Positions 24,841-44,990 of a stretch of 64,000 nt of DNA are shown piece by piece (position 1 is the first letter of the stretch; each line of letters starts with the position of its first letter). The stretch is taken from NCBI RefSeq assembly GCF_005405185.1, contig NZ_BJDO01000004.1, positions 1-64,000 of the forward strand. Reading direction: 5' to 3'. The position numbers were made by a program, and so were the translations under genes. Source of the DNA: Secundilactobacillus hailunensis (GTDB lineage Bacteria > Bacillota > Bacilli > Lactobacillales > Lactobacillaceae). The notes under the pieces were generated by a model. The model had not been told where the DNA came from. It did not search any database and saw only the letters and a list, made by a program, of their open reading frames with translations.

Positions 24841-26688
24841 TTGGCGAGAATACCCGAACAGGTAATTGAACAAGTCCGCGATGCAACTGATATCGTGGAT
24901 TTTATTAGTCAGTACGTCCAATTGCAGAAGCAAGGGAAAAATTTCTTTGGTCTGTGTCCATTTCATGAGGAACGGACGCCTTCTTTTTCGGTCACTGAGG
25001 ATAAACAAATTTTTCACTGTTTCAGCTGCGGTCGCGGCGGCAACGTCTTCAAGTTCTTAATGGAGCTTGAAAACCTCAGCTTTCAAGAAGCGGTGGTCAA
25101 AGTTGCGGCATTTTCACACGTTTCGCTTGACGCACAGATCGTTAACGCGGCAACTGGTGAAGGTCAGCACGGCGACCCGCAGTCACCGACTAATCAGCTG
25201 ATCAGATTGCACCAGGATGCGACCAAGCTTTACACGCACATTTTAATGAACACCGAGATGGGTCAGCCAGCACTGGATTATTTGCATAAGCGCGGGTTGA
25301 CTGATCAAACCATTTCGGATTATGGTCTGGGGTTTGCACCAAGTAAGCAACTCTTAAAGCCGTTTTTCGAAACGCGCAAGATCGATTACCAGACATTACG
25401 GCATTCCGGGCTGTTTATTGAAAATTCGGATGGTGAACTGCGGGACCGGTTTGTTGACCGGATCATGTATCCCATCCGTAATCAGTCAGGTCAGGAGATT
25501 GCCTTTTCTGGCCGGATGCTGAACCAAACACCAGATCAGCCGAAGTATTTAAACAGTCCGGAAACCGAATTGTTTAATAAACGGAAAGTTTTGTTCAACT
25601 TTGATCTGGCTCGGGGCGCCGTGCGTAAGCAGGGTAACCTGATCTTGTTTGAAGGGTTCATGGATGTCATGTCAGCGCACCAATCCGGTGTGGATAATGG
25701 CGTGGCTTCCATGGGGACCAGTTTGACTGAGGAGCAGATCTATGCGATTCAGCGAATTACCAAGCGAATCTACGTTTGCTATGACGGTGATACTCCGGGG
25801 CAAAAGGCCACACAACGGGCGCTATCGATATTACGGGATAATTCCAGTTTAACCTTGGGCGTCATTCAGATGCCAGAGGGGATGGATCCCGATGAATATC
25901 GTCAAAAGTATGGTGAAGCTAAACTGGCCAATGCGCTGGAATCGGCTCGAGAAACGCCAGTCGCCTTTGAAATGCGGTACCTGAAAACACAATATGATGT
26001 GAATACCGATACTGGCAGGCTGCAATATTTAAACGATATTTTAGCCATTCTGGCAACGGTGAAGTCACCCGTTGAACAAGACGTTTATTTGACCCAATTA
26101 GCTGACAGTTTTCAACTTGAAAAGGCCAGTTTGCGACAGCAGTTAGCCATGGTCAAGCCGGCCCGTCAGACACCTGAAAGGTCAGCACCGCCAACTGTCA
26201 GAACTGGTCAAAGTCAACCGGCAACCCAGCAACAGCAGGTGGTGAAGCGCACGCCGATTGAAAAGGCGGAACGGGCGTTACTTTACCGAATGCTTCACGA
26301 CCACGATGTGTGGCTGCGAGTTACTGGTCTGCCAAATTTTAGTTTCGCCGACGATGATTATCAGTTAGTGTATACGCTGGCTCAGGGATATTTTGAAACC
26401 CACCAGAGTTATGCACCAGCCCAGTTCGTGGATTTCATTCACGATGATCATTTGCAGAATCTGGTGATCGATATTGAATCGATGCAGTTAAATGAAACAA
26501 CTAGCGAAGGTGAAATTGATGATTACATTCAGCTGATCATGAACGTGGCACCGTTAACGAAACAAATTGGTGAAACCGAACAGGCATTGCAAGAAGCACG
26601 ACGGCTGGGTGATAACGACCGCGTGCGCCAACTTGTGATTGAATACATTAAGCTACAACAACAAAAGCAGTCTCAAAAACAAGCTTAG
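24841..26688 (+). CDS. dnaG: DNA primase DnaG
   Basis: Synthesises RNA primers at the replication fork with DnaB. N-terminal CHC2 zinc site: Cys39, His42 ([11 protein letters not shown]), Cys60 and Cys63 ([10 protein letters not shown]). RNA-polymerase core with TOPRIM motifs [17 protein letters not shown] and [12 protein letters not shown]-terminal helicase-binding region follows a Gln/Pro-rich linker near 445-470. 615 aa is typical. TTG start at 24841 behind AAAGGGGG. Directly followed by rpoD (11 bp), the macromolecular-synthesis operon. Confidence 0.96.
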
Positions 26689-26699
26689 GGGGCTTTCTA

Positions 26700-27842
26700 A
26701 TGGCAAAACAAACAAAGAGTGCAAAGAGCACCAAGAGCAGCAAGACATTTGATCAAAAAGGTTACGATAAAGCTGTTAAGGACCTGGTGAAAGACTATAA
26801 GAAAAAGGGTCAAGTCACCTATGATGAACTCTCAGATAAAATTGCCTCACCATTTGGTTTAACTGCCAAGAAGATGGACGGTTTACTGGAAAAGGTCGAA
26901 GATGCTGGTATCAGTGTCGTTGATGAAAATGGTGATCCAGATTCACGTGCCGTTAAAGCTGCCAAGAAAGTTACTGCTAGTGAATTAAAGAATACTTCCG
27001 CACCATCCGGGGTCAAGATCAACGATCCCGTGCGGATGTACTTGAAGGAAATTGGCCGGGTTAAGCTATTAACTGCCGATGAAGAAGTTGCGTTAGCGCT
27101 GCGGATCGAACAGGGCGATGAAGATGCTAAGCAGGAACTGGCCGAAGCTAACTTACGTTTGGTGGTTTCCATTGCTAAGCGTTACGTGGGCCGTGGGATG
27201 CAGTTCTTGGATCTGATTCAAGAAGGTAACATGGGTCTGATGAAGGCCGTTGAGAAGTTCGATTACCGTAAAGGGTTTAAGTTCTCAACCTATGCCACAT
27301 GGTGGATTCGTCAAGCGATCACCCGTGCCATTGCTGACCAAGCCCGGACGATTCGGATTCCAGTTCACATGGTTGAAACTATCAACAAATTAATTCGAAT
27401 TCAACGTCAATTACTCCAAGACTTGGGTCGTGAACCTACGCCTGAAGAAATTGGTGCTGAAATGGATATGCCAACGGAAAAGGTTCGGGAGATCTTAAAG
27501 ATCGCGCAAGAACCCGTTTCCTTGGAAACCCCTATTGGTGAAGAGGACGACTCTCACTTGGGTGACTTTATTCAAGATGATGACGCCACTAGTCCTGCTG
27601 ACCATGCCGCTTACGAGCTGTTAAAAGAACAGCTTGAAAGCGTGCTGGATACGTTGACTGACCGTGAAGAAAACGTCTTGCGTCTTCGTTTCGGTTTGGA
27701 TGATGGTCGAACCCGCACCTTGGAAGAAGTCGGTAAAGTCTTCGGTGTTACCCGCGAACGAATTCGTCAAATCGAAGCTAAAGCCTTACGCAAGTTGCGT
27801 CACCCTTCACGTTCAAAGCAGTTGAAGGATTTCTTGGAATAA
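26700..27842 (+). CDS. rpoD: Primary RNA polymerase sigma factor RpoD (SigA)
   Basis: Housekeeping sigma-70 factor, 380 aa. Lys-rich N-terminus and region 1.1, then region 1.2 ([21 protein letters not shown]), region 2 ([18 protein letters not shown] and [15 protein letters not shown], which includes the -10 recognition helix), region 3 ([16 protein letters not shown]) and region 4.2 ([19 protein letters not shown], the -35 helix). RNA polymerase containing it would recognise the TTGACA/TATAAT promoters seen throughout the window. Cotranscribed with dnaG; long terminator hairpin downstream. Confidence 0.97.
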
Positions 27843-27871
27843 GATTAAAATTTATAATAGATTATAAGAAG

Positions 27872-27922
27872 AAAACACTCTGTTCATGGTCGAAAGCGAC
27901 TAGTGATCAGGGTGTTTTTTTA
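27872..27922 (+). terminator. Terminator of dnaG-rpoD
   Basis: AACACTCTG and CAGGGTGTT (one G-U pair) enclose an inner stem GTCG-AAAG-CGAC, followed by T7. Confidence 0.8.
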
Positions 27923-27972
27923 TGCTGTTGGTAAGCAATACGCCGGCAATGAAAAATTAACAACAGATAATC

Positions 27973-28001
27973 TTTACATGTGAAAACCGCTACATTATAA
28001 T
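27973..28001 (+). promoter_or_regulatory. Promoter of adhesin 1
   Basis: TTTACA (27973-27978), 17-bp spacer, TATAAT (27996-28001). It leaves a leader of about 170 nt before the ATG at 28180. The same TTTACA-N17-TAYAAT form precedes adhesins 2 and 3. Confidence 0.7.
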
Positions 28002-28179
28002 GAAGCCAATAGATGGGGGGCATCGTATAGGAGGAGTAATTTTTCAGAACAAGTAGGCGATTATGTTTAACTTATAGTTAATCCTGTTAATTATTGCTTG
28101 AATCTAAACAACTTAGACTTTAAATTGTTTTTAATAGATTAAATAACTAATTGGTAGACAGAATTAGGGGGTACCAGAA

Positions 28180-28755
28180 ATGGTAGGAAAAAATAATCAT
28201 AGTAGGACGATTAAGTCCAATCTAAAAGAGCATTATAAGGCGTATAAGGCTGGTACAAGGTGGATTTATGCTAGTTTAGCCAGCTTAGCGCTTGGAGCGG
28301 GATTATTGCTGGGGAGCAGTATAACCAGTTACGCTGACACTACAGCAGATAATACGCAACAATCAACTACAACAGAAGCCAATGCGACTTCAAACGCGGC
28401 AGCGAATACGCAAAACGCAGATACAGTGATGTTAAAAACGGACACAAATACTAATAATAGTGATAACGCTGCTAATTTAAAATTAAATGATGATTCGGCT
28501 TCTAATTCAAATGAAAATGAAAAGAACAGCACGGCCACGGATACTGGTAATCAAAGTGCTGTTCAAAAAACACCAACTACGGTCGGTAGTCCCGTTAACA
28601 ACACAGCTGCTGATTCAGCTAAACAAGTCAACACTGCAGATCAGAATACAGTCCAAAATGGACAGGTAGCTAACGGTGATTCTGCAAGTAGTGCGACAAG
28701 TGATCCAACTAAAACGGTTGCTACAACAGATCAACAAGTTGCAAAAAAACTTTAG
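28180..28755 (+). CDS. Adhesin 1, N-terminal part (signal peptide and low-complexity region), cut by a frame break
   Basis: First 191 codons of a giant LPxTG-type surface protein. Residues 1-53 form a KxYKxGKxW-type signal peptide: NLKEHYKAYKAGTRWIYASL, then LALGAGLLLGSSITSYA. The rest is a Ser/Thr/Asn-rich low-complexity stretch like the same part of adhesins 2 and 3. The frame ends GTT GCA AAA AAA CTT TAG. In the -1 frame the text continues ACT TTA GTT GAC CCA, giving TLVDPT, which is exactly what adhesin 3 has at this place (KTLVDPTNAQLKAAQASAAQ). So this is one gene split at an A7 tract (28743-28749). Unless slippage or frameshifting occurs, it yields only a short exported peptide. Confidence 0.8.
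   Translation: MVGKNNHSRTIKSNLKEHYKAYKAGTRWIYASLASLALGAGLLLGSSITSYADTTADNTQQSTTTEANATSNAAANTQNADTVMLKTDTNTNNSDNAANLKLNDDSASNSNENEKNSTATDTGNQSAVQKTPTTVGSPVNNTAADSAKQVNTADQNTVQNGQVANGDSASSATSDPTKTVATTDQQVAKKL
28743..28755 (+). other. Slippery A7 tract with immediate stop
   Basis: A7 at 28743-28749 followed by CTTTAG. The arrangement A AAA AAA C is a known slippery pattern for -1 ribosomal frameshifting; one extra A (replication or transcription slippage) would restore the frame equally well. The zero-frame stop follows within two codons. Confidence 0.65.
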
Positions 28756-28775
28756 TTGACCCAACGCAAGATCAG

Positions 28776-31700
28776 TTGGATGCTGCCAAAGCTAGTGCAG
28801 CACAGGTTTATGCCACAACTCATCAGCCACAGGAAATTGATGCGGTAGCGGATGATTCAGATACGGCTGCACCGCTGACAATTTCAGCCAATGCAGTCGG
28901 GTATGGTACAAATGCGCAAAGCCCGTTAACACTAACCTTACAGGTAAATGCTAACGCGGGCGATGTTTACAAGATTAATATTCCTGCGGATACATCGGTA
29001 TATACTTTTGATCGGGTAGTTCCATTAGCTAGTTCGATGGGAACTACAGTTACAGATAAGAACACTGATGGCTCACGCACGGTGACGGATACTTTTACTA
29101 CTAATTCAACAACAACTCAAGAGATTAGATTTAATTTGAGTAATAATGCTACCTATCAGCCAGCTGGCATGGCGGATGTAGGTAAGACAGTGGACAAGAC
29201 GATTACGTACTCGGTGAACGGGGTTGCTCAAGCGCCAATTACTTTTACCCAGCGGATTCAACCAACGACTAAGCTGTCAACAGTCTCATTGCTATATCCA
29301 GATTCACAGACCGTTAGCAAGATTTTACCTAACCAAAATTACGTTTTTGGTGTGAGTGTTAATGAAGCTGATGGTGTGCAAGATGATAGTTCAGCGACTG
29401 CTCGTGTTAATAGCGCAGATAACTATGGTGGATCTGAAATTAACATTCCAGTTCCAACAGGTTTTGTTTTAGATAGTAATAGTACAAATCAAATTAATGG
29501 GTTTGGTGATGGATCAACCATTACGCAACCTGGTGGCAAGGGAACTAATGTTATTATTAGTGTTCCTGAAAAGTCAGGTAATCAGGCGCTAGATAATGCA
29601 CCCGAATATAAAATCGTTGGGGCTTTTAATGTCGCTCAAACTACTACTGATCAGACGCTCACTGCTAATGGCAATGTGACATTTTCTCAAGTTATCAACT
29701 CGGATAGTGCACCACTAACTGATTCGGCCGATCCTTGGAATGTTACTATACTTTCGGCGAACGCTGATGCGACACAAGGTAGTAAAGCAACTGTTACTAG
29801 CAAAGGTAATTCTTCTATAGCTTCTGACAAGCTTGAGTTGAATCAGGATGCTAGCGATAGCCCTCAGTATCTCAATAGTTTTGGCTTTACGTTTAATTCA
29901 GCGGCTGAGGCCAACAATGCTAAGGTTACGATTAACGTTCCTAGTGGATTAGATGTCACCAGTATCACGACGCCAGTTCAGGGTATTAGTCCATCAAGTT
30001 ATATGCCAGATACGTCAAGTTGGGGTTACACTTTGACGCTCGCAGATGGAACAACTGAAACTGGGACTGTCAATGCAGGTGATACAGCCAAGGTAACAGG
30101 TAATTCTGCAATTAGAACAGCAGTATTTACTCCAAATAAATTGGCACCAGGATCATATACAAATGACTTGGGTAAAGCTAATAGTTTCAATGCAGCTGGT
30201 CAATTATCGACTACCTATGACAATGGAACAGCCGTTAAAAATGGCGATAAATTGACGTCTGCCATTGCTATAGCATTTGACACTAACGATGGACAAACCC
30301 AAATGGTCTCGGTGCCAACCACTCAAACGATTGTGGATGATGTGGCGTTAGGTCAAATTACCCTAATTACTAGAAGTAGTGCTCCAGGTAATTCTAGTGC
30401 TGGTACTCTTGAAACCCGGTATAACGATGGAGAGGGTCAAACCACAAATAAGATTTATGAACCAACTTTCTACTTTGTCATTCCTAAAGCAACGACTGTT
30501 GCATCGATTAATAGTCTTTATTGGTATACTGATCCTACTGCAAATCCTGCAACCACTGATTCGACGGGTGGATTATTAACAAAAGCCACTGGTGCCAAGG
30601 TTTCCAAATTTATTGCAGACAATGGTCAGACGGTGGTAAAAATTGATTATTCGGGAACTGGTACTACAGTTGATATGAGTCAGACGACTGGTTATTGGGG
30701 GGCAGTGACATTTGCTAATAACTCTGATGCTTTACCTGGCAAGTACCCATACTATGTATATATTGCTTCGCCAAAAACTAAACTGTTAAATGCTACGAAA
30801 CCGAAGGACTCCTCCTTTGTTGAAAATAATCCGAATGCGTACCTGATGAATGGTGAAGGCGAGAGTGGTACGGGTGATTGGACAATTGAGACTGCGAAGT
30901 CCTTCAATAATAGTTCGGTAGCACAGGGTAATCGAGATATTGATGCCGTAAAAAATGGTACAAGCGATGTTAATGGTGATGGTACTTTAAACTTTTACGA
31001 TTCTATTGTTAATACTTTGTTAGATGACGGAAAAGATCATAAGGCTAGTGTAGCAATTAACTTGCCAACAGAGGGTGTCAACGGCTCTCAATATACGTTT
31101 AAGCTCAATGATTCGACTGGTGTCGATGTGCCAGCTAATTACACTACTACAAATGGTGATGGTACTGCAATTAATCCGGTTATTTTGTATTCTACGCAAC
31201 TGCAACCGGTTACAGATACGGCTACTGCTCCAGATACTACAGGTTATGTGAACAATAACCAGGTTACTGACTGGTCTTCAATTCGGTCAATTATTGTTCA
31301 GATTGACGGAATTAAAACTAACACCTCAACAGGTAGAATCAAAATTAGCGGGACAACAGCAGGTGATTTTAAACAACAAGCTGGTAAAACCGGTTATCTG
31401 CAGACCATTTTCTATGGTGATAATAATGAAGCTAGTGTAGATTCGAAAACATCTATCAAAATCACAGGGGCTTCAACTGTTAAAACCCGTTATCACTACG
31501 TTGATGCTGACGGAGATGATCAGTACGTTGATCTGAATGATTTGAGCAAAACACTAAATGATGACGTGGATACATTTACGAATAATTATCCGACGCAGCT
31601 TTCGGGCTTTTCACTTACTGATCAGGCCTTAATCCCGACTGGTTATAGTCTTGTAACGGATGATTCAGGTAAAGTCACACCTACCATTGTTGATGGCACA

Positions 31701-33362
31701 AATAATGGTAAAGCTGAATTTGGTAAGACTGCACAATACTACTATGACGGCGATTATGTTCAGTATGAATTGGCTGATAATGCTAGTCTGAAGGTTACCT
31801 ATGTTGACACTGACAATAATAATGCCACTGTTGGGACACCAGAAATACTAGACGGCACGGTTGGCGAAACGGGTACTTACAACACTAAGGTACCAACTAA
31901 CTACGTGTTAGCACCTGGACAAAATGTTATCGTACCATATAAGTTCAGTACAGATACATCAGATAATCTCACAATCAAACTGGCACATAAGCATACAGCA
32001 GACGTACCCCAGGGGTTCAACAGCACCACAACTCGAACTATTACGGTGGTTGGTGTTGATGGGAAACAAACAGTAATCCAGCAACCTGTCAAATGGACAA
32101 CGGATACCGATCTTGTTACTGGTGTAACAACGTATACACCAAGCGAAAATTATTCTGACTACGTAACACCTGTAGTTGAAGGGTATACACCAACGTCACC
32201 AGATACACCGGCAATTACGAATGCTCCAACGACAACTATGCCGACTAATCCAGCTGATATTTTCATTACCTATACACCGAACAAACAAAATACGACTTTG
32301 GAATATGTGGATGATGATAATGGTGGTGCAGTTGTTGGGCAACTAACGACAATTTCTGGAGCTACCGATGGTATTGTTGGTTGGAATGCAAGCAATATTC
32401 CGGCGCACTATATCTTAGCTTCAGGTCAGCCTACCAGTGGGACGTATACTTTTAAGGCTGGCAATAATTCACCAATTCAGATTCATTTAAATCACAAACT
32501 TGATTACACTACCACCACTTCGACTCGGACGATTCACTATGTAGTAGATGATCCAAGCTTTACTGGCCAAGTGCCAGCACCAACGGTTCAAACGGTTACT
32601 TGGAAGGTTGTTACTGATGAAGTAACTGATCAGAGTGTGGCAACACCTCAAGGTGCTTATTATGAGCAGACGGTACCAAATCTGCCAGGCTACACTGCAA
32701 ATCCAAGTAAGGTTGATCAGCAGTTCTTTGGCAGCGTGGTTGCGCAAGACGTCCCAATGTATAACGAGGACGTCGTTGTTACTTACACGCCGCAGCTAAC
32801 TGGTCCCAAAAAAGGTGATGATGGTTCTGGAAATCAACCAGGTGGTAACCCGACTGGACCAACGACTGGGCTAACAACTGGAGATGAAACATCGACACCT
32901 GGTAAAGTCGTCACAAATACAACGACTCCTGGTAAAGGGACTAAAAAGACCACGAATCCAGGCACAGCGGTTAACAAACCAACAGCTCCTAAGGGGGTTA
33001 AAAAGACCACGAATCCAGGAACAGCAGTTAACAAAGCAACGACTCCTAATAAAGGGGTTACGAAGACCACGAGTTTAGGAGCAATAGTTCCAAGAACTAC
33101 TGCAAATAATGTGAACGGTTCGCAGTCATCACTCGGATCTAATACTAATGCTGGTACTGCTGAAACGTTAACAACTTCTGTAGCAGCAACTCAAAATGGT
33201 TCAGTTGCAGAAGGTCAATCTAATTCTTCGACTGTTAACCAGCAGAAGTTACCACAAACCAACGAACAGAGTCATTCAACAGTTGGTTTGGGCATCTTGG
33301 GCTTGTTGACCAGCGTGTTAGGCTTGGTTGGTCTGAAACGGCGTAAACGTAATGATGAGTAA
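28776..33362 (+). CDS. Adhesin 1, main part: MucBP-type LPQTN surface protein
   Basis: 1528 codons continuing the frame-broken gene; the coding frame actually runs from about 28750. About 950 residues of beta-rich adhesin repeats shared with its neighbours come first (for example VVKIDYSGTG and the VAINLP..G..GSQYTFKL blocks). A segment with TRYHYVDADGDDQYVDL follows, then mucin-binding-type modules (LKVTYVDTDNN, TLEYVDDDNGGAVVGQ) and Mub-type TRTITVVGVDG modules. A Pro/Gly/Thr stalk with about three 20-residue repeats containing KKTTNPGTAVNK comes next. The C-terminal sorting signal is KLPQTNE, a hydrophobic helix, and KRRKRNDE. A start at TTG 28776 would lack any signal peptide, so on its own this part could not be exported. 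Cell-wall anchored adhesin if the frame is restored. Confidence 0.82.
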   Translation: MDAAKASAAQVYATTHQPQEIDAVADDSDTAAPLTISANAVGYGTNAQSPLTLTLQVNANAGDVYKINIPADTSVYTFDRVVPLASSMGTTVTDKNTDGSRTVTDTFTTNSTTTQEIRFNLSNNATYQPAGMADVGKTVDKTITYSVNGVAQAPITFTQRIQPTTKLSTVSLLYPDSQTVSKILPNQNYVFGVSVNEADGVQDDSSATARVNSADNYGGSEINIPVPTGFVLDSNSTNQINGFGDGSTITQPGGKGTNVIISVPEKSGNQALDNAPEYKIVGAFNVAQTTTDQTLTANGNVTFSQVINSDSAPLTDSADPWNVTILSANADATQGSKATVTSKGNSSIASDKLELNQDASDSPQYLNSFGFTFNSAAEANNAKVTINVPSGLDVTSITTPVQGISPSSYMPDTSSWGYTLTLADGTTETGTVNAGDTAKVTGNSAIRTAVFTPNKLAPGSYTNDLGKANSFNAAGQLSTTYDNGTAVKNGDKLTSAIAIAFDTNDGQTQMVSVPTTQTIVDDVALGQITLITRSSAPGNSSAGTLETRYNDGEGQTTNKIYEPTFYFVIPKATTVASINSLYWYTDPTANPATTDSTGGLLTKATGAKVSKFIADNGQTVVKIDYSGTGTTVDMSQTTGYWGAVTFANNSDALPGKYPYYVYIASPKTKLLNATKPKDSSFVENNPNAYLMNGEGESGTGDWTIETAKSFNNSSVAQGNRDIDAVKNGTSDVNGDGTLNFYDSIVNTLLDDGKDHKASVAINLPTEGVNGSQYTFKLNDSTGVDVPANYTTTNGDGTAINPVILYSTQLQPVTDTATAPDTTGYVNNNQVTDWSSIRSIIVQIDGIKTNTSTGRIKISGTTAGDFKQQAGKTGYLQTIFYGDNNEASVDSKTSIKITGASTVKTRYHYVDADGDDQYVDLNDLSKTLNDDVDTFTNNYPTQLSGFSLTDQALIPTGYSLVTDDSGKVTPTIVDGTNNGKAEFGKTAQYYYDGDYVQYELADNASLKVTYVDTDNNNATVGTPEILDGTVGETGTYNTKVPTNYVLAPGQNVIVPYKFSTDTSDNLTIKLAHKHTADVPQGFNSTTTRTITVVGVDGKQTVIQQPVKWTTDTDLVTGVTTYTPSENYSDYVTPVVEGYTPTSPDTPAITNAPTTTMPTNPADIFITYTPNKQNTTLEYVDDDNGGAVVGQLTTISGATDGIVGWNASNIPAHYILASGQPTSGTYTFKAGNNSPIQIHLNHKLDYTTTTSTRTIHYVVDDPSFTGQVPAPTVQTVTWKVVTDEVTDQSVATPQGAYYEQTVPNLPGYTANPSKVDQQFFGSVVAQDVPMYNEDVVVTYTPQLTGPKKGDDGSGNQPGGNPTGPTTGLTTGDETSTPGKVVTNTTTPGKGTKKTTNPGTAVNKPTAPKGVKKTTNPGTAVNKATTPNKGVTKTTSLGAIVPRTTANNVNGSQSSLGSNTNAGTAETLTTSVAATQNGSVAEGQSNSSTVNQQKLPQTNEQSHSTVGLGILGLLTSVLGLVGLKRRKRNDE
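32918..33090 (+). repeat. In-frame stalk repeats of adhesin 1
   Basis: About three tandem units of roughly 60 bp encode variants of T-P-x-KG-x-KKTTNPGTAVNK; the first two are nearly identical and the third has drifted. They form the wall-spanning Pro/Thr/Gly stalk. Such repeats can expand and contract by recombination. Confidence 0.7.
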
Positions 33363-33418
33363 CTCAAGCATAGAAAAGTAATTTGAAATCTTTGTCAACG
33401 CAGGTTGATGAAGTATTT

Positions 33419-33459
33419 AAAGAAGATCAATTCATTGATGAATTGGTCTTCTTTTTTTA
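33419..33459 (+). terminator. Terminator of adhesin 1
   Basis: Stem AAAGAAGATCAATTC with GAATTGGTCTTCTTT (one G-U pair), short loop, T7. Confidence 0.85.
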
Positions 33460-33473
33460 TATCCTCATGATTT

Positions 33474-33487
33474 TGAAAACGCTTTTA
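33474..33487. promoter_or_regulatory. cre site upstream of adhesin 2
   Basis: TGAAAACGCTTTTA, the same 14-mer as the site upstream of pyk, lies 94 bp upstream of the adhesin 2 -35 box. A location upstream of the promoter is more compatible with CcpA activation than with roadblock repression. The corresponding region of adhesin 3 does not have it. Confidence 0.5.
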
Positions 33488-33580
33488 CCAATTATTTTGA
33501 ATCTAAATACCAGTGACTATTTCTTTAAATGATTAGAGAAATTTTCCAAAAAACTGGCAATCTAAACCGGATAATCGCCG

Positions 33581-33609
33581 TTTACAGGCAATATCTGCCG
33601 TTTTACAAT
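33581..33609 (+). promoter_or_regulatory. Promoter of adhesin 2
   Basis: TTTACA (33581-33586), 17-bp spacer, TACAAT (33604-33609). The surrounding 60 bp are visibly homologous to the adhesin 3 promoter, showing that promoter and gene were duplicated together. Confidence 0.7.
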
Positions 33610-33740
33610 TAATTTGTTTAGTAAAGGTGGTCAACAAATAGGAGTAGGACAGGGGCTTGAGTGACTAGCTGAACGTTATTAATTATTTTACTCAGAAGTC
33701 AGAAATTAACCGTTATTCACATACCGGGAGGGACCAGAAG

Positions 33741-36700
33741 ATGGTTGGTAAAAATAATAACATTAGGACTATAGAAACGAATTTGACGGAACACTATAAG
33801 GCATATAAGTCAGGCAAGCAGTGGATATATGTCAGCTTGGCGAGCGTTGCACTTGGTGCTGAACTGCTGCTTGGCGGTAATCTGTCTGCGTATGCGGATA
33901 CCGCAACATCGGCAACACCAACTGCGACTAACGTCAATGCATCTAATACATCAGCAGACGTTGCAAGTACCGCTGCCAATAAGACTGCTGTAAATACCGG
34001 CAGTTCTGCAAGTACCGCTGATAGCAAGACCAACATTAATACAGGTCATCAGCAAACAGCGACAAATTCCGGTGCAACGACGAGCAATGGGTCAGATTCA
34101 AATTTGAACACAACATCTAAGTTGGCGACGAATAATGATGCGCAATCAGCTGCAACGCAAACGCCCACTACAGTGCAGACACCTCAGACTAGGGGGCAAG
34201 CCCCCGAATCTGAAGCAACGTCAACTGCACCGCAGATTCAGACAAAACAGTCAAATAGTGACGTACCAGCGCCTGTTTCAAGAACTCAGGTAGCTGCGAG
34301 TGATCAGCAATTTAAGTCTGCTCAGACTTACGCTGCCGCTTTAGCGCCACAGAATTTAAAGACCGCTCAAATGGTGGCCACAGCGGATGCAACGTTAAAT
34401 CTTTCATCACCAGCAGTGGGTTATGGCAGTAACGCCAAAAGTCCGTTGACGGCGACCTTGAAGGTGACCGCTAAAGCGGGTGACGTCTACGTCATTTATA
34501 TTCCGGCTAACACGCCCGTATTCTCATACAGTTCAGTTCAGCCTTTGACGAGTACTGTCGGCACGACGATTGTGAGCCAGCATGCGAGTGGTGCGGCGTT
34601 TACGATTACGAATACCTTCAAAATTGATGCTGTGATCTCACAGGAAATTAAATTTAATTTGGCCAATAACTACGGGGCTACCGATACCATGGCAGACGTT
34701 GGCAAAACCGTTACCAAGACGATCGACTGGTCAGCAAATGGCGTAAAACAAACACCAGTGACCTTCACCCAAACGATTAAGCCGACCATTAATTTAACGC
34801 CAGTGGTGATGACTTATCCTAATCAAGAAAACATCCCAGAGGTCGTGCCTGATACGAATTATGTCTTTTCCATGAACGTGAATGAAGCTAACGGGGTGCT
34901 AGATAACGGGTATCAATCGGGGCGGGTCAACCGCGGTGATAATTTTGGCGGTTCAACGATCACGATTCCAGTTCCTGCTGGTTTTAAATTAGATGAGGGC
35001 AATACCCAAAAAATTAATGAATTCTCGGACAAGACCACGATTACTCAGCCTGGTGGTGCTGGCAGTGCGCTTATCATTAACGTGCCAGCAGGCAGTGGCG
35101 CTGAAAACTGGGAAGCTCAGGGCGGTTACCGTTTGGTGGGCTCCTTTGAGATAGCTCAACCGGAAACCGACACCGTTTATACGGCCGATGGTGCAACGAC
35201 CTTTAGCCAAATTATGAATGCCGATGGCGATAAGTTAACTGGCAGTGTGGCGCCTTGGACCGTGAAAATTCTGGGGGTCAATACCGGTGGTGGTAGTGTG
35301 GGTAATGGGGTTGCCGGCACGACCGCCCAAGCTTCCAAGACAAGTTTATTGCTGGATAACGACCCAACCAACGACCCATCATTTTTATCAAGCTTTGGTT
35401 TTTATTTAGATTCAATGACCGATACCAGCGGCGCTAAGATCACCATTACGATTCCGGATGGTCTGGATGCAACTGGTATTCAAACGCCGGCTTCGGCTGT
35501 GAACGCCCAAGTTTATCTGCCGGGAACCACTAGCTATCAATATACCTTAACGTTAGCGGACGGTACGACGGAGACTGGCAGCGTAAACGCTGGTGAAAAG
35601 GTGACTGCTGCTGATGGGTCAGCAATCAGGAAGGTGGTTTTGACACCGAACTACCTAGCCCCTGGTGCCAATACCTCCAGAACCGGTAATTTGAATCCTA
35701 ATAAGACACCAGCTGCACCGTATCAACGTTTTATCGTCGAGGGGCAATTAGCGCATCGCTATGATGATGGCCGAGCGGTTAAATCTGGCGACAAGTTAAT
35801 GTCAACGATCACGCTAGGTTTTGCTAATGAAACGCAGCCTCAAAAAGAGGCCACTTCAACCATTACCCAAGCGGTGGTCGATGCTGTTGCTCTAGCAATT
35901 GGTTACAAGCAAGAAAACAGTTCGACGCCCGGCGTTCAAGCGGCTGGCTACCTAGCTGTTCAGGGCGGGGAATACGGTCAAGTATCGAAACAAATTTTTG
36001 AGCCGACCTACTACTTTGTGATTCCTACAGCGACAACGGTAACCAACGTCACGGCTAAACCGGGCGCTAAGATCAGTACCTTTAAAGCTGATGATGGGCA
36101 TACGGTTGTTAAAATTGATTATTCGGGCACGGGAATCACAGTGAATACCGATGAGGCTGCCACAATTGGTCAGGTCAATTTAGCCAACAATCCCGATGCA
36201 CTGCCTGGCAATTACGCCTATCTGATGTATATCGCGTCACCGACCACGACGCTTTCAAATACGACTAAAGTTACTGATAAAACCTATACTGATGGCAATC
36301 CAGATGCTGTTTTGATGCAGGGCGGTGCTGGTGACTGGCAGATCGTCACCGCCAGTTCGTTTTATAATACGGCGCTGGCTCAGGGCAATACGAACAGTGA
36401 CCCAGTAACTCACGGGATTAGTGATGATAAGGGGAGCACAACGCTGACCTTCTACGATAACGTTGTGTATACCTCACTAGCAGAAGATGCCAAGAATTCC
36501 AATGCTGAAGTAGCAATCAATTTACCGACCATTGGTAAAAATGGGTCGCAGTACACCTTTAATCTGATGGGTCCAATCAAAGTGCCGACTCATTACACGG
36601 TCGTCAGCGGCACGGGGGCGCCAATGGATGCAACGGTTCTTTATAGCACCGACTTTCAAAAGGTGACTGGCGATGAAACGACACCGGATACGACCGGTTA

Positions 36701-38447
36701 CGTGTCCGCATCTGAAGTAATGGATTGGTCTAAGGTTCGCTCGGTTATCGTAAAAGTAAATGGCATTAAAGCCAATACGGCAACGGGCCGAATTGAACTA
36801 ACGGGGACGACTGCGCAGCCATTTGCTCAGCAGGCCGGTAAAACAGGCAATTTACAGACGGTCTTTTATGGCAATGGCGCCAAAGTCAGTCTGGGTTCCG
36901 ATAACGCGTCAATTAAAATTACGGGGACTTCCACGATCAAAGCGCGTTACCACTATGTAGATGCTAGCGGACAAGATCAGTACGTCTATCTAGATGATTT
37001 AAACCAGACATTAGCTGATAACGTGGATGAGTTTAAAAATAATTATCCAACTCAGCTAACTGGCTTCTCAGCAAAGGATAAGAGTCTCTTGCCGGCCGGT
37101 TATCAACTGGTCACGGATGCAACGGGCAACGTGACGCCGAAAATTATTGACGGTACTGGTAACGGTGCTGCCAAGTTTGGCACCGTGGCACAGGCTTCCT
37201 ACAATGGTGATTTTGTCCAATACGACTTGGTTGATCAGGCCAGTGCGCTGATGGAATACGTGGATGATGATAACGATGGGGCAATTGTTGGTACGCCAAC
37301 TCCCTTAACTGGGACGACAAATGGTACCGCCCACTGGGATACGGCCGGTCAGGTTCCTGCCAATTACGCGTTAGCAAAGGGGCAAGCTGCCAGCGGGACC
37401 TATACCTTTACGGCAGCGCCTAACCAAGTCCTCCAGATTCATCTGGTACATCAGTTAACCACTGGAACGGCAACCACTATCCGGACGATTACCTATATGA
37501 TTGCTAATGGGGATCGGTCCAAGACGCCTGCACCAGTCATTGAAACGATGAATTGGAAGACGGTCACGGATAAGGTGACGGGTATCAGTTATGCCGCACC
37601 GCTGAATGATTACGCGGCCGTTCCTAATCCGGTCATCGCTGGTTACACACCGCATAGTACCGTTAAACAGCTGACTGAAGGGCCAATGCTGACCAGCCAG
37701 TTATCAAAACTAAATATGAACGTGATCGTTCTTTATACGGCTGATAAGCAGACCGTGTCAATCACGTACGTCAACACGAAGACGGATCAGCCAATCAAGA
37801 CGATCGTGGTCACTGGCAAGACGGATGATCCAATCGTCGTCCCTGATCTACCGGGTTACACACTAGATAGAAGCGGTGACCCAACTAGCTTTGAACCGGG
37901 ACTGACTAAATTCAACGTACCGGCAACGCCAAATGAAGGATCGGGGAATACTGGTGGTGGGTCAGGTAATACTGGCACGACCACAACACCCGGCGATCCG
38001 GATACTGGCACGACACCTGATAATCCGGATACGACTACGACACCTGGTGAACCTGGTACGGCAACCACTCCTGATAATCCTGATATAGTTACGACGGTTG
38101 ATAATACGGGGACGGCAGTAGCTCCAGAAACACCAGCAACCTCACAGTCTGAAGGACAAGGGGTAGCCACTGGAAGTCAAACTTCTGGCGGTAATGTTAA
38201 AACTGAATCAACGGCTACTACTAAGGGTGTCAGCACTGAACAGGCGCCTGCACAAGCTGGTTTGGCAGTAACAACTAGTACGACTACCAAGGTGACCGGT
38301 CAAGCCAATGATTCGAAGACTAATTCTGGTAAATTACCGCAGACCAATGAACGCAATGATCAAGCAGCTGGTTTATCGCTGTTAGGATTAGTGACTGGTG
38401 TGCTTAGTCTGCTCGGAGTGAAACGGCGCAAACACGATAATGGTTAA
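33741..38447 (+). CDS. Adhesin 2: LPQTN-anchored mucin-binding-type surface protein
   Basis: 1568 aa, intact. Signal peptide of KxYKxGKxW type (HYKAYKSGKQWIYVSLAS, then LSAYADT). Residues about 55-210 are Ser/Thr/Asn/Gln low complexity. The shared adhesin core runs about 215-1150 (NVNEANGV, YFVIPTATTV, VVKIDYSGTG, LTFYDNVVY blocks and KARYHYVDASGQDQYVYL). It is followed by one MucBP-like unit (LMEYVDDDNDGAIVG), a Mub-type unit (TIRTITYMIANGD) and a TVSITYVNTKTD unit. The stalk is a Pro/Asp/Gly/Thr repeat (TTTPGDPDTGTTPDNPD). The sorting signal is KLPQTNE followed by a helix and KRRKHDNG. Ribosome site GGGAGG. Codon use is visibly richer in G/C-ending codons (ACG, GCG) than in adhesins 1 and 3. 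Confidence 0.9.
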   Translation: MVGKNNNIRTIETNLTEHYKAYKSGKQWIYVSLASVALGAELLLGGNLSAYADTATSATPTATNVNASNTSADVASTAANKTAVNTGSSASTADSKTNINTGHQQTATNSGATTSNGSDSNLNTTSKLATNNDAQSAATQTPTTVQTPQTRGQAPESEATSTAPQIQTKQSNSDVPAPVSRTQVAASDQQFKSAQTYAAALAPQNLKTAQMVATADATLNLSSPAVGYGSNAKSPLTATLKVTAKAGDVYVIYIPANTPVFSYSSVQPLTSTVGTTIVSQHASGAAFTITNTFKIDAVISQEIKFNLANNYGATDTMADVGKTVTKTIDWSANGVKQTPVTFTQTIKPTINLTPVVMTYPNQENIPEVVPDTNYVFSMNVNEANGVLDNGYQSGRVNRGDNFGGSTITIPVPAGFKLDEGNTQKINEFSDKTTITQPGGAGSALIINVPAGSGAENWEAQGGYRLVGSFEIAQPETDTVYTADGATTFSQIMNADGDKLTGSVAPWTVKILGVNTGGGSVGNGVAGTTAQASKTSLLLDNDPTNDPSFLSSFGFYLDSMTDTSGAKITITIPDGLDATGIQTPASAVNAQVYLPGTTSYQYTLTLADGTTETGSVNAGEKVTAADGSAIRKVVLTPNYLAPGANTSRTGNLNPNKTPAAPYQRFIVEGQLAHRYDDGRAVKSGDKLMSTITLGFANETQPQKEATSTITQAVVDAVALAIGYKQENSSTPGVQAAGYLAVQGGEYGQVSKQIFEPTYYFVIPTATTVTNVTAKPGAKISTFKADDGHTVVKIDYSGTGITVNTDEAATIGQVNLANNPDALPGNYAYLMYIASPTTTLSNTTKVTDKTYTDGNPDAVLMQGGAGDWQIVTASSFYNTALAQGNTNSDPVTHGISDDKGSTTLTFYDNVVYTSLAEDAKNSNAEVAINLPTIGKNGSQYTFNLMGPIKVPTHYTVVSGTGAPMDATVLYSTDFQKVTGDETTPDTTGYVSASEVMDWSKVRSVIVKVNGIKANTATGRIELTGTTAQPFAQQAGKTGNLQTVFYGNGAKVSLGSDNASIKITGTSTIKARYHYVDASGQDQYVYLDDLNQTLADNVDEFKNNYPTQLTGFSAKDKSLLPAGYQLVTDATGNVTPKIIDGTGNGAAKFGTVAQASYNGDFVQYDLVDQASALMEYVDDDNDGAIVGTPTPLTGTTNGTAHWDTAGQVPANYALAKGQAASGTYTFTAAPNQVLQIHLVHQLTTGTATTIRTITYMIANGDRSKTPAPVIETMNWKTVTDKVTGISYAAPLNDYAAVPNPVIAGYTPHSTVKQLTEGPMLTSQLSKLNMNVIVLYTADKQTVSITYVNTKTDQPIKTIVVTGKTDDPIVVPDLPGYTLDRSGDPTSFEPGLTKFNVPATPNEGSGNTGGGSGNTGTTTTPGDPDTGTTPDNPDTTTTPGEPGTATTPDNPDIVTTVDNTGTAVAPETPATSQSEGQGVATGSQTSGGNVKTESTATTKGVSTEQAPAQAGLAVTTSTTTKVTGQANDSKTNSGKLPQTNERNDQAAGLSLLGLVTGVLSLLGVKRRKHDNG

Positions 38448-38500
38448 AAATTAGTGGTAATCATTACCACGGTAACTAAAACGAATTTTTATTGATTAGA

Positions 38501-38558
38501 AAACCAGGGGTAGTTCATGATGTGATCATTGATCACCATGAACTACCCCTGGTTTTTT
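38501..38558 (+). terminator. Terminator of adhesin 2
   Basis: Very long stem: AAACCAGGGGTAGTTCATG and complement, continued by an inner GTGATC/GATCAC arm, then T6. Confidence 0.9.
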
Positions 38559-38666
38559 GCTTATTTTGAATGAATATTATCTAACCATTAATGGATATTA
38601 ATGTAAGCGTCACCATTTATTTTGATTTTTTTAAAAAGATTGACAATCTCAAACGTTGGATAGGTA

Positions 38667-38695
38667 TTTACAGGAAATATTTGCTGGCATACAAT
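38667..38695 (+). promoter_or_regulatory. Promoter of adhesin 3
   Basis: TTTACA (38667-38672), 17-bp spacer, TACAAT (38690-38695), homologous to the adhesin 2 promoter. The leader is about 165 nt, ending in CATACCAGGAGGGACCAG, almost the same as in front of adhesin 2. Confidence 0.7.
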
Positions 38696-38863
38696 GAAAT
38701 TGTTTAATAAATGGGGTTAACAATCAGACATACAGGATTACGGTTTAATAGTGATTTGCCGGTAATTTGATAAACGTGATTAACCCCCTTTACAGTCATG
38801 GCTCAATAGTTATCGGCAGGGGAAGCAGTTGTCAGTTATTCACATACCAGGAGGGACCAGATC

Positions 38864-42976: not shown

Positions 42977-43044
42977 GTCACTGAATGAAGTTTAGTATCA
43001 GAATTATGGTAACGATTGATGACGAGTACTTGATAGAACAATGT

Positions 43045-43090
43045 AAAAGGGTGGGTCATGATGGAAAATCACCATGACTCACCCTTTTTT
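43045..43090 (+). terminator. Terminator of adhesin 3
   Basis: AAAAGGGTGGGTCATGATGG with CCATGACTCACCCTTTT (mismatches mostly G-U), loop AAAATCA, T-rich tail. Confidence 0.85.
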
Positions 43091-43116
43091 ATGACCAATT
43101 AAAACGGCGTGAAATG

Positions 43117-43146
43117 TTGTGCTAGGTTTGCCCTCTAGCCTATAAT
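43117..43146 (+). promoter_or_regulatory. Promoter of trmK-nif3
   Basis: TTGTGC (43117-43122), 18-bp spacer, TATAAT (43141-43146), about 38 bp before the trmK start. Confidence 0.5.
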
Positions 43147-43183
43147 AGAACTACGATTATTTATGAAAAGGAGCAACCAACCT

Positions 43184-43888
43184 ATGAATGGGACACACTT
43201 ATCCAACCGGTTACAGACCGTAGCTGATTTCGTAAAACCCGGTGCTCGTTTGGCCGATATTGGGTCAGACCACGCGTACCTGCCAGTGCATTTAGCTAAA
43301 CAGGGGGTTATTCAGGCCGCCGTTGCTGGCGAAGTCGTGAAGGGACCTTACCACAACGCCGTATCAGAAATTGATGGTGAGCAGTTAAACGCTGTGATCA
43401 CCGCCCGTTTAGCCGATGGGCTAGCAGCGATTCAGCCAGATGATCAGATCGACACGATCGTGATTGCCGGCATGGGCGGTACGCTGATCACTAATATTTT
43501 AGAGAGTGGCAAGGCGCATTTGACCCACCATGAACGGCTGATTTTACAGCCCAACGTGGGTGAAGATCATGTGCGGCGCTGGTTGCAGGATAATCACTAC
43601 CAGATCGTGGCGGAACGGATTTTAGCCGAAGACGGTCACATTTATGAAATTATCGTGGCGGATCCGGCAGAACACGCGGTTAAGTATTCTGCGGCGGAGC
43701 TTAAGTTTGGCCCGTTTCTGCTGCAAGAAAAGAGTCCCGTCTTAAAAACTAAATGGCGCAGTGAACAAACTCGCCTGCAGCAAGTTATTCAAACGATGAA
43801 ACAAGCTAAAAACGCGCCCGAAGCGAAAATTCAGGAGTTTGAACAGGAGTGTCAGCAAATTCAGGAGGTCATTTTAAATGAAGATTAG
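43184..43888 (+). CDS. trmK: tRNA (adenine22-N1)-methyltransferase TrmK
   Basis: SAM-dependent methyltransferase that makes m1A22 in bacterial tRNAs. Rossmann motif I ADIGSDHAYLPVHLAKQG near 25-42 and the downstream IDTIVIAGMGGTLI block are family signatures; LILQPNVGEDHVRRWL follows. A C-terminal coiled-coil segment (TRLQQVIQTMKQAKNAPEAK) is typical. Start at 43184 with AAAGGAG ten bases upstream; an ATG at 43163 precedes that ribosome site and is rejected. 234 aa. It overlaps nif3 by 11 bp, and in many Firmicutes the pair follows rpoD; here the adhesins intervene. Confidence 0.92.
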   Translation: MNGTHLSNRLQTVADFVKPGARLADIGSDHAYLPVHLAKQGVIQAAVAGEVVKGPYHNAVSEIDGEQLNAVITARLADGLAAIQPDDQIDTIVIAGMGGTLITNILESGKAHLTHHERLILQPNVGEDHVRRWLQDNHYQIVAERILAEDGHIYEIIVADPAEHAVKYSAAELKFGPFLLQEKSPVLKTKWRSEQTRLQQVIQTMKQAKNAPEAKIQEFEQECQQIQEVILNED

Positions 43889-44990
43889 AACATTGATCGA
43901 GCGTTTTGAACAGTTTGCACCCAAGTCGATTGCCGAACCCAAGGATCCGGTGGGGCTGCAGTTAGGCTCATTAGACGCTGATTTTCACAAGGTGCTCGTG
44001 ACACTGGATGTCAGACCAGAAGTAGTGGCTGAAGCAGTGAAGATTGGTGCTGACTTCATTTTTGCCCACCATCCTATGATGTTTCACCCGGCGAAGAACC
44101 TCGATTTGAGCGATCCGCAAAACCAGATGTACGCCACGTTACTGCAGCACCACATTACGGTGTATGCCGCGCACACGAATTTAGACAGTGCCAACGGCGG
44201 GATGAACGACTGGCTGGCTGATGCACTGGGCTTGACGGATACCGTTGGGATGGTCGATGGCGTCCGTGAGACCAATTACTTGCTGACGGTTCACGTGCAG
44301 TCGGTCTATGCGGATGCAATTCGGCTCGCTATGGTGGGTGCCGGGGCTGGTGATATGGCCCGTTATTCCGGTGCCAGCTTTGAATGGAGCGGCACCACCT
44401 GGTTCACACCGATGCAGGGAGCTAACCCAGAGCTGGGTCCCGTTGGTGAACGTAACAGCACCGAGGAATTGGCGCTTCAAGCACGGGTGCCAGCATCCAA
44501 ATTGCAGGCAGTGACGCAGGCAGTGAATGGTGTCTATCCTGGTGGTCATCCTGCTTTGGAGCTGACTAAGTTAGCCGATGAAGGCACGCAATATGCCATG
44601 GGCCGCATCGGCAATCTGCCAAAGCCAATGACGGTGCGGGAATTTGCCGAACACTGCAAGCAGGTCTTTCACGTTGCTGGTCTGCGGGTAGTGGCTGCTG
44701 ACATGGACCAATCGATTCAGCGCATTGCTGTCCTTGGCGGTGATGGCGGTAAATTCTTCAAGATTGCCCAGCAAAAGGGTGCCGATGCTTACGTGACTGG
44801 TGATGTGTATTATCATACCGGTCATGACATGATTGCCGCGCATTTCCCAGTGATCGATCCTGGCCATCACATTGAAAGTATCTGCAAGTCGCACCTTACC
44901 GAATTATTTGAACAGTGGCGGGATCAGAATAAGTGGCAGTTTGAGATTGTGCCATCAGCGTTAAATACGGACCCGTTCACGTTTATTTGA
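43878..44990 (+). CDS. Nif3-like dinuclear metal centre protein (YqfO family)
   Basis: NIF3/YqfO hexameric metal protein of 370 aa, with the inserted PII-like (CutA-type) middle domain found in Firmicutes. Metal-site segments: FAHHPMMFHPAK near 55-67, AHTNLDSANGGMND near 96-110, and C-terminal DPGHHIESICK. The insert is about residues 130-230 (YLLTVHVQSVYADAIRLAM, YPGGHPALEL). Precise biochemical activity is not established; some members have been called GTP cyclohydrolase 1 type 2. It overlaps trmK and is 14 bp from pepT. Confidence 0.9.
   Translation: MKIRTLIERFEQFAPKSIAEPKDPVGLQLGSLDADFHKVLVTLDVRPEVVAEAVKIGADFIFAHHPMMFHPAKNLDLSDPQNQMYATLLQHHITVYAAHTNLDSANGGMNDWLADALGLTDTVGMVDGVRETNYLLTVHVQSVYADAIRLAMVGAGAGDMARYSGASFEWSGTTWFTPMQGANPELGPVGERNSTEELALQARVPASKLQAVTQAVNGVYPGGHPALELTKLADEGTQYAMGRIGNLPKPMTVREFAEHCKQVFHVAGLRVVAADMDQSIQRIAVLGGDGGKFFKIAQQKGADAYVTGDVYYHTGHDMIAAHFPVIDPGHHIESICKSHLTELFEQWRDQNKWQFEIVPSALNTDPFTFI

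What the first reader, a model, noticed from the sequence alone, without database searches (positions are those of the whole stretch)
28735..28760. A7 slippery tract splits a giant adhesin exactly where a -1 shift restores homology
The zero frame reads GTT GCA AAA AAA CTT TAG. Reading in the -1 frame after the A tract gives TLVDPT, identical to adhesin 3 at the same place, and then 1.5 kb of intact adhesin. A AAA AAA C is a classic slippery pattern, and the stop follows two codons later. Three explanations are open: phase variation by A7/A8 slippage in replication, transcriptional slippage, or programmed -1 frameshifting. The downstream 4.6 kb shows no further decay, which argues for recent loss or continuing function. 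A simple sequencing error in the homopolymer is also possible.
Basis: partly seen in the sequence, partly recalled or inferred. Interest (0 to 1): 0.75.

Follow-up and report, generated by a model that had tools for sequence, protein, structure and literature searches.

The report
Adhesin gene broken at A-run
A large cell-wall adhesin gene in a silage-type lactic acid bacterium is split at a run of adenines, most likely a recent off-mutation by ordinary copying slippage, with no clear sign of a dedicated frameshifting signal.

Summary
At 28743-28749 an A7 run lies in the linker of the first of three tandem KxYKxGKxW/LPxTG adhesins (genus Secundilactobacillus). The N-terminal frame stops at TAG 28753-28755; the other frame continues as TLVDPT and is open to the wall anchor at 33362. 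Linker composition places the lesion in 28743-28755. Alignment to S. silagei alone cannot tell this from a place about 15 nt upstream. S. silagei has an intact ortholog with an eight-A run there.

The lesion looks recent: no other break downstream, and dN/dS over the first 567 body codons resembles intact homologs. Among 82 S. silagei ORFs with hits on two contigs (about 96 kb covered), this is the only frame split in the window's genome. That argues against pervasive homopolymer error, but only 12 long A/T runs were tested, so error at this site stays possible.

Programmed frameshifting is poorly supported: the heptamer comes with the run, the downstream fold is ordinary, and 22 of 24 intact homologs lack the run. 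Phase variation is untested.

The site is also the edge of a mosaic block relative to S. silagei, and other adhesins of the genus are broken at other places.

Best reading: a slippage-made OFF allele, ordinary in kind.

The parts
26700..27842 (+). RpoD (sigma factor) gene, left border of the adhesin island
   Evidence: NCBIfam RpoD equivalog; a match in 15 of 15 genus genomes
28167..28171 (+). G5 run at the Shine-Dalgarno position of adhesin 1 (G6 in S. silagei)
   Evidence: sequence, alignment, survey
28180..28755 (+). adhesin 1, N-terminal open frame: KxYKxGKxW signal peptide plus S/T/N/A-rich linker, 191 aa, ends at TAG
   Evidence: PF19258 E 7.7e-11
28743..28749 (+). A7 run at the frame change (lesion placed in 28743-28755 by linker composition; alignment alone allows about 28727 onward)
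28753..28755 (+). TAG stop in the N-terminal frame
28749..33362 (+). adhesin 1, body and C-terminal part in the other frame, TLVDPT... to LPxTG anchor, no further stop
   Evidence: dN/dS of its first 567 codons like intact homologs
28729..33130 (+). mosaic block: mostly 49-76% DNA identity to S. silagei per 100-nt window, between flanks of about 90% (left edge sharp near 28728; right edge approximate; a stretch at 32523-32822 is 80-85%)
33741..38447 (+). adhesin 2, open frame of 1568 aa
38864..42976 (+). adhesin 3, open frame of 1370 aa, carries TLVDPT
43878..44990 (+). Nif3-like gene, right border of the adhesin island
   Evidence: NCBIfam YbgI_SA1388; a match in 15 of 15 genus genomes

Best explanation
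Adhesin 1 is a recently active, sortase-anchored surface protein gene whose reading frame was lost by a one-base length change in an A run in its linker. The likeliest cause is slipped-strand mispairing during replication. In the sequenced isolate the gene is OFF: translation would give a 191-aa secreted fragment (signal peptide plus linker) without adhesive body or wall anchor. The A_AAA_AAA heptamer is the run itself seen in phase, so some low-level ribosomal or transcriptional leak into the long frame is expected, but it is not a designed product. Shown: the anatomy, the intact sister ortholog with a run one longer, the open body with normal constraint over the part measured, and no other frame break in the compared neighbourhood. 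Inferred: the exact place of the lesion (from linker composition), replication slippage as the cause, and the OFF state in the living cell. Open: whether the allele reverts often enough to count as phase variation.
For: The zero frame keeps linker-type composition up to the run: 24 intact linkers of 3544 residues hold no Cys and 0.31% Arg. The five codons before the two Lys codons of the run read DQQVA in the zero frame (natural log-odds against a uniform background +2.2) and RSTSC in the other frame (-4.9). The S. silagei ortholog is one open frame of 2264 codons and has eight As at the homologous place. Of 27 homologous adhesin genes found in the genus, 24 are open from the signal peptide into the body, and none of the other 26 is broken at this site. 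Over its first 567 codons the body has dN/dS 0.125 against its nearest relative, versus 0.123-0.144 for the four intact pairs measured within its clade, and it is closer to each of five outgroups than that intact relative is. Among 37+45 S. silagei ORFs with hits on contigs C4 and C7, adhesin 1 is the only frame split found in this genome. An S. silagei adhesin paralog is broken by an 8-bp insertion that forms a tandem repeat, so a slippage-type lesion hit this family elsewhere.
Against: Alignment to S. silagei does not place the lesion in the run: the aligner put the one-base gap at 28728/28729, and scoring each position gives 55 matches for 28727-28731 against 54 for the run. The placement rests on composition. 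That alternative place is also the mosaic edge. The comparison covered about 96 kb and 12 of the 40 coding A/T runs of 7 or more on the two contigs, so the case against sequencing error is limited. dS of the main pair is 1.3, so dN/dS is rough. No reads and no second strain of the species were available. A7-A8 is short for a contingency tract.
Confidence: 0.65

Rival explanations
1. Sequencing or assembly error in the homopolymer; the gene is intact in the organism.
For: One-base length difference at a homopolymer; single draft genome of 154 contigs; no other decay in the body. PMC3711429 (passages) holds that singleton frame-shifted genes are likely indel mutations or sequencing errors, and its authors expected those singletons that BLASTp validated to be sequencing errors.
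Against: No other frame split in this genome among 82 S. silagei ORFs with hits on two contigs; 11 other coding A/T runs of 7 or more lie in the compared parts without a detected break. This is a small sample. A7 is not long for present-day short reads (general knowledge; the platform is unknown).
Confidence: 0.17
2. True reversible phase variation: the run length switches in the population and turns adhesin 1 on and off. (This overlaps the main reading.)
For: Run length is 7 here and 8 in S. silagei at the same place. Large surface adhesins are typical phase-variable products (PMC3711429, passages). B. breve pili switch by replication slippage at an intragenic G tract (PMC9187656, passages). 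The G run at the ribosome-binding site also differs between the two species (5 versus 6).
Against: The run is short. Of 24 intact homologs only S. silagei A1 (A8) and G006_C11 (A6) have an A run of 6 or more at the site. Of 12 other broken-looking adhesin genes that could be read, 11 have no run of 6 or more near the end of the N-frame; all 12 come from two genomes of lower quality. No population data.
Confidence: 0.2
3. The frame was lost by an out-of-register recombination join when the adhesin body was exchanged, at or just before the A run.
For: Identity to S. silagei drops from about 90% to 72% and below within one 100-nt window of the run, and the one-base gap fits the edge of the divergent stretch at 28727-28731 as well as the run. 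The body clusters with an adhesin of another species (G001_C63, support 100/99) and S. silagei's with G006_C11 (100/100).
Against: The zero frame continues as linker through the 14 divergent nt before the run, while the other frame there reads RSTSC. Which of the two species exchanged its body is unknown. An old out-of-frame exchange would have left decay, and no further stop is seen.
Confidence: 0.12
4. Programmed -1 ribosomal frameshifting or functional transcriptional slippage at the run makes the full-length adhesin.
For: A_AAA_AAA is in phase for -1. Two small hairpins follow, the 51-nt stretch folding at -14.1 kcal/mol. Transcriptional insertions rise with A/T run length (PMC5574713, passages). 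PMC1088944 (passages) notes that slippage may be productive on eight As, and on shorter runs in some bacteria.
Against: The fold is ordinary: z 0.41 over 101 nt and -1.38 over 51 nt; adhesin 3 folds as well (-14.8) without a slippery run. By eye no Shine-Dalgarno-like stretch precedes the run. In E. coli, heptamers without stimulators gave at most 10 times their non-shifty control, whose mean was 0.055% (PMC4066793, section 17). Selection against transcriptional slippage becomes evident at nine As/Ts in a large proportion of genomes (PMC1088944, passages). The arrangement is not conserved.
Confidence: 0.04

Closest known systems
Replication-slippage ON/OFF switch of sortase-dependent pili in Bifidobacterium breve (PMC9187656, passages seen)
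   Same: Homopolymer inside the coding region of a surface-protein gene of a Gram-positive commensal; run length decides whether two frames join.
   Different: G10-G11 tracts with measured population variation and similar tracts across the genus; here a short A run, a single genome, no recurrence found.
Slipped-strand mispairing phase variation of bacterial surface proteins (general class, described in PMC3711429, passages seen)
   Same: Frame change at or beside a poly-A/T run of 7 or more in an exposed protein.
   Different: No evidence of switching or of conservation of the tract.
S. aureus mapW and IS-element frames with A8-A9 transcriptional slippage (PMC1088944, passages seen)
   Same: Two open frames meeting at an A run.
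   Different: Run shorter here; not preserved in homologs; no product known.
dnaX / IS-type programmed -1 frameshifting (PMC4066793, section 17 and passages seen)
   Same: In-phase A_AAA_AAA heptamer with the continuation in the -1 frame.
   Different: No stimulator that stands out and no conserved arrangement.

Membership tests
KxYKxGKxW-type, LPxTG-anchored surface adhesin | KxYKxGKxW signal peptide | tested here: met
   PF19258 E 7.7e-11, 42.2 bits over cut-off; TIGR03715
KxYKxGKxW-type, LPxTG-anchored surface adhesin | C-terminal LPxTG anchor, in the second frame | tested here: met
   PF00746 22.5 bits over cut-off; TIGR01167
KxYKxGKxW-type, LPxTG-anchored surface adhesin | adhesive function | not testable with these tools
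   no solved relative of adhesin 3 at E 0.01 (adhesins 1 and 2 not searched); a MucBP_2 domain only in adhesin 2
Phase-variable (contingency) locus | repeat tract in coding DNA at the frame change | tested here: met
   A7 at 28743-28749; that the lesion is in it rests on composition
Phase-variable (contingency) locus | tract conserved in orthologs | tested here: not met
   A run of 6 or more at the site in 2 of 24 intact homologs
Phase-variable (contingency) locus | length variants in one population | not testable with these tools
   one genome per species; no reads
Programmed -1 ribosomal frameshifting | in-phase X_XXY_YYZ heptamer | tested here: met
   A_AAA_AAA in phase; also in 3 other places in 179 kb coding
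Programmed -1 ribosomal frameshifting | downstream structure or upstream SD stimulator | tested here: inconclusive
   weak hairpins, z 0.41 and -1.38; pseudoknots not tested; no SD-like stretch upstream by eye
Programmed -1 ribosomal frameshifting | conserved arrangement in homologs | tested here: not met
   none of the other 26 homologous genes breaks at this site
Transcriptional slippage site | A/T run of about 8-9 or more | tested here: not met
   run is 7; length from PMC1088944, which allows shorter runs in some bacteria

The most novel reading that the evidence does not exclude
Secundilactobacillus adhesin genes may carry two homopolymer dials: an A run in the linker of this gene (7 here, 8 in S. 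silagei) and a G5-G7 run used as the Shine-Dalgarno sequence of many family members (5 here, 6 in S. silagei). Slippage at either would switch or tune a bank of giant adhesins in silage bacteria. The A-run site also coincides with the edge of a mosaic block, so switching and module exchange may meet at one place.
Probability: 0.08. Interest if true: 0.5.

Novelty: new member of a known kind. Interest (0 to 1): 0.25.

Why it matters
As a run-length OFF mutation it is ordinary, but it shows how surface adhesins of food-type lactobacilli are gained, exchanged and silenced: a variable island between rpoD and the nif3-like gene, a mosaic body, and frame loss in more than one member. If length variants were found in single cultures, it would be a simple, measurable phase-variation model in a fermentation organism.

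Tried and rejected
Programmed frameshifting: folds of 101 and 51 nt downstream, and of the same 51 nt in 18 of the 27 adhesin genes, the window's own included, gave nothing special. The hairpin CCAAC/GTTGG also forms in G001_C67, which has no slippery run, so it probably follows the coding sequence (DPTxxQL).

Pervasive sequencing error: a first census used a 50% identity threshold and missed adhesin 1 itself; it was repeated at 40%, which found it. One search used 119+120 S. silagei ORFs of 80 aa or more, of which 37+45 had hits. A check made while revising the report showed that these hits cover about 96 kb of the 202 kb of C4 and C7 and 12 of the 40 coding A/T runs of 7 or more. In the reverse direction three splits were listed. 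One is the real C10 adhesin break in S. silagei. One (A_56993) looks like a start extended into a leader. One (A_10104) is a small ORF in DNA that looks non-coding. The last two were dropped after reading alignments.

Placing the lesion by alignment: not decisive. Gap at 28727-28731 gives 55 matches, in the run 54.

Genus-wide A-tract switching: short KxYKxGKxW frames were fetched and read. One search read 15: adhesin 1 and 14 others. G013:C45 ran off its contig, and G000:C40 lies near a contig end without a second frame. Of the remaining 12 (5 from G009, 7 from G013), 11 had no run of 6 or more near the end of the N-frame and one (G013:C73) had G6; in three (G013:C15, G009:C9, G009:C2) the next part is in the same frame, so a stop and not a shift ends the first. 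Both genomes have lower completeness (91, 93%) and higher contamination (8, 7%), so these breaks may reflect the assemblies. The list was cut, so the survey is incomplete. Three fetched loci (L152, L154, L155) were not read.

Plasmid collection: no match to 28000-33400. Family-wide DNA search with 28728-30300 (397 genomes, drawn from a larger group) found nothing closer than G001 (75% DNA identity).

Literature: no paper in the library holds both Secundilactobacillus and adhesin or Secundilactobacillus and frameshift. The Lactobacillus or lactobacilli searches on phase variation, frameshift and homopolymers listed no lactobacillar homopolymer switch that I recognised; for these I saw titles and abstract starts only, and passages of PMC9187656. 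This covers only the open-licence PMC library.

Full report
What is there. The window lies on contig C4 of a 2.7-Mb draft genome of 154 contigs. Its nearest held relative, G011, has a contig of the same length (147457) as Secundilactobacillus silagei JCM 19001 NZ_BCMG01000009.1, and G010 one like S. pentosiphilus. The window is therefore from a Secundilactobacillus species close to S. silagei: the long syntenic blocks are 85-92% identical. The species name was not determined. Three adhesin genes stand in tandem between rpoD (26700-27842) and a nif3-like gene (43878-44990). Both border genes have a match in 15 of 15 genus genomes. In G014, G006, G010, G003, G012 and G011 they lie 6-18 kb apart with one or more adhesins between. 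In G007, G013, G009, G002, G004, G005 and G008 they lie 0.8-1.4 kb apart. In G001 they are on different contigs. It is a variable adhesin island.

The break. Adhesin 1 starts at 28180 with a KxYKxGKxW signal peptide, runs through an S/T/N/A-rich linker, reaches GCA AAA AAA CTT TAG and stops after 191 aa. The continuation TLVDPT... is open in the other frame to 33362 and ends in an LPxTG anchor. Adhesin 3 has the same TLVDPT; adhesin 2 does not.

Where exactly the lesion is. The linkers of 24 intact homologs (3544 residues) contain no Cys and 0.31% Arg. The window's zero frame fits that composition up to the run, while the other frame has stops, Cys and Arg. This places the lesion in 28743-28755. 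Alignment to S. silagei does not decide: the aligner put the one-base gap at 28728/28729, in front of 14 nt that do not resemble S. silagei, and trying each position gives 55 matches at 28727-28731 and 54 within the run. S. silagei has eight As where the window has seven, and its frame is open over 2264 codons.

Homologs. One search listed 28 matches in 13 of 15 genomes; two are pieces of one gene, so 27 genes. Of these, 24 are open from the signal peptide into the body (in G013_C4 the frame opens inside the signal peptide, so its start was not seen). The three broken ones are the window's adhesin 1, an S. silagei paralog on C10 that breaks some 30 codons after the homologous site, and G009_C2, which has an in-frame stop before the site and a second break in the body. 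Only S. silagei A1 (A8) and G006_C11 (A6) of the 24 have an A run of 6 or more at the site.

How old, and is it real. The second frame shows no stop over 4.6 kb. Over its first 567 codons dN/dS is 0.125 against G001_C63, compared with 0.123, 0.133, 0.138 and 0.144 for four intact pairs within the same clade. Other pairs ranged from 0.084 to 0.206, one pair was saturated, and the adhesin 1 linker against S. silagei gave 0.379. dS of the main pairs is 1.3 or more, so the values are rough. Adhesin 1 is closer to each of five outgroups than G001_C63 is. This does not separate a very recent loss from continuing function or from an error in the record. A frame census of contigs C4 and C7 against S. 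silagei C9 and C10 found one split in this genome, adhesin 1, among 37+45 S. silagei ORFs with hits. The hits cover about 96 of 202 kb and 12 of 40 coding A/T runs of 7 or more, so homopolymer errors do not look pervasive but the sample is small. In the reverse direction the one real split lies in the S. silagei C10 adhesin: an 8-bp insertion that makes a tandem repeat; every other internal indel in the aligned part of that gene is a multiple of three.

Mosaic. From 26500 to 28667 the window is 89-99% identical to S. silagei per 100-nt window. Identity then falls to 79 and 72% across the site and mostly to 49-76% until about 33119, apart from 80-85% at 32523-32822, and returns to 86-96% from 33120. 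Adhesins 2 and 3 are mostly 80-99% identical throughout, apart from a linker patch (33895-34091, 60-62%) and about 500 nt absent from the window in adhesin 2, and 68-74% at 42188-42387 in adhesin 3. In a tree of the first 585 aa (at most) of 25 bodies, the window's adhesin 1 pairs with G001_C63 (100/99) and S. silagei's with G006_C11 (100/100), while adhesins 2 and 3 pair with their S. silagei counterparts. One of the two lineages has probably exchanged the body of adhesin 1; which one is not settled. That the frame lesion sits at the edge of the exchanged block is either coincidence, the edge being where linker meets body, or a sign that the join made the lesion. The linker-like zero frame through the last 14 divergent nt speaks for a lesion in the run.

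Mechanism. A run-length mutation by slipped-strand mispairing explains the observations with the fewest assumptions. The slippery heptamer is not independent evidence, since an A7 run in this phase is A_AAA_AAA by itself; three other in-phase copies occur in 179 kb of coding sequence. No stimulator stands out: the RNA fold is near the shuffled mean over 101 nt (z 0.41), and over 51 nt 22 of 200 shuffles fold as well (z -1.38). Adhesin 3 folds to -14.8 kcal/mol in the same place, against -14.1 for adhesin 1; the other 16 of 18 genes folded lie between -12.8 and -1.7. Published E. coli data give at most ten times a control of mean 0.055% for heptamers without stimulators (PMC4066793, section 17), and selection against transcriptional slippage becomes evident at nine As or Ts in a large proportion of genomes, though shorter runs may slip in some bacteria (PMC1088944, passages). 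A small leak is likely, a designed product unlikely.

Phase variation. The closest precedent found is the intragenic G-tract switch of Bifidobacterium breve pili (PMC9187656, passages). The present case lacks what defines a contingency locus: the tract is not conserved and no length variants could be looked for. Twelve other broken-looking adhesin genes could be read, all from G009 and G013, two genomes of lower quality; 11 have no run of 6 or more near the end of the N-frame.

A side result of some interest. Of 52 distinct KxYKxGKxW gene starts in the fetched loci, 29 have a G run of 5 or more in the 22 nt before the start codon and 10 have 6 or 7, against 17 and 1 of 296 non-adhesin ORFs picked by the same rule. 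The rows are related, one is from another genus, some are from broken genes, and at least two (L038, L140) have a wrongly chosen start, so this is a lead only. The window's adhesin 1 has G5 and S. silagei's has G6 there.

Verdict. The best reading is a recent, slippage-made OFF allele of one of three tandem adhesins, confidence 0.65. Reversible switching within that is possible (0.2, overlapping the main reading), record error 0.17, recombination join 0.12, programmed recoding 0.04.

Noticed in passing
28167-28171 and starts of related adhesins in fetched loci: Many KxYKxGKxW adhesin genes have a G5-G7 run at the Shine-Dalgarno position (29 of 52 with G5 or more; 10 of 52 with G6 or more) versus 17 and 1 of 296 other ORFs; length differs between orthologs (G5 here, G6 in S. 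silagei).
   Followed up: partly
26700-44990: Variable adhesin island between rpoD and a nif3-like gene: up to three adhesins found between them, and only 0.8-1.4 kb between the border genes in seven of 15 genomes.
   Followed up: partly
28729-33130: Body of adhesin 1 is a mosaic block of mostly 49-76% identity to S. silagei inside flanks of about 90%.
   Followed up: yes
L072 (G011:C10 70000-84000), near contig position 73370: S. silagei adhesin paralog broken by an 8-bp insertion forming a tandem repeat; the window genome's counterpart on C7 is open.
   Followed up: partly
L073 (G009:C2): Adhesin with an in-frame stop and a later frame change, an older-looking pseudogene.
   Followed up: no
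5671-5678: A8 run near the start of an open ORF (5638-6048) directly after the ORF 5175-5663; a coding A8 also lies in S. silagei at C9:91032, probably the same place (not aligned).
   Followed up: no
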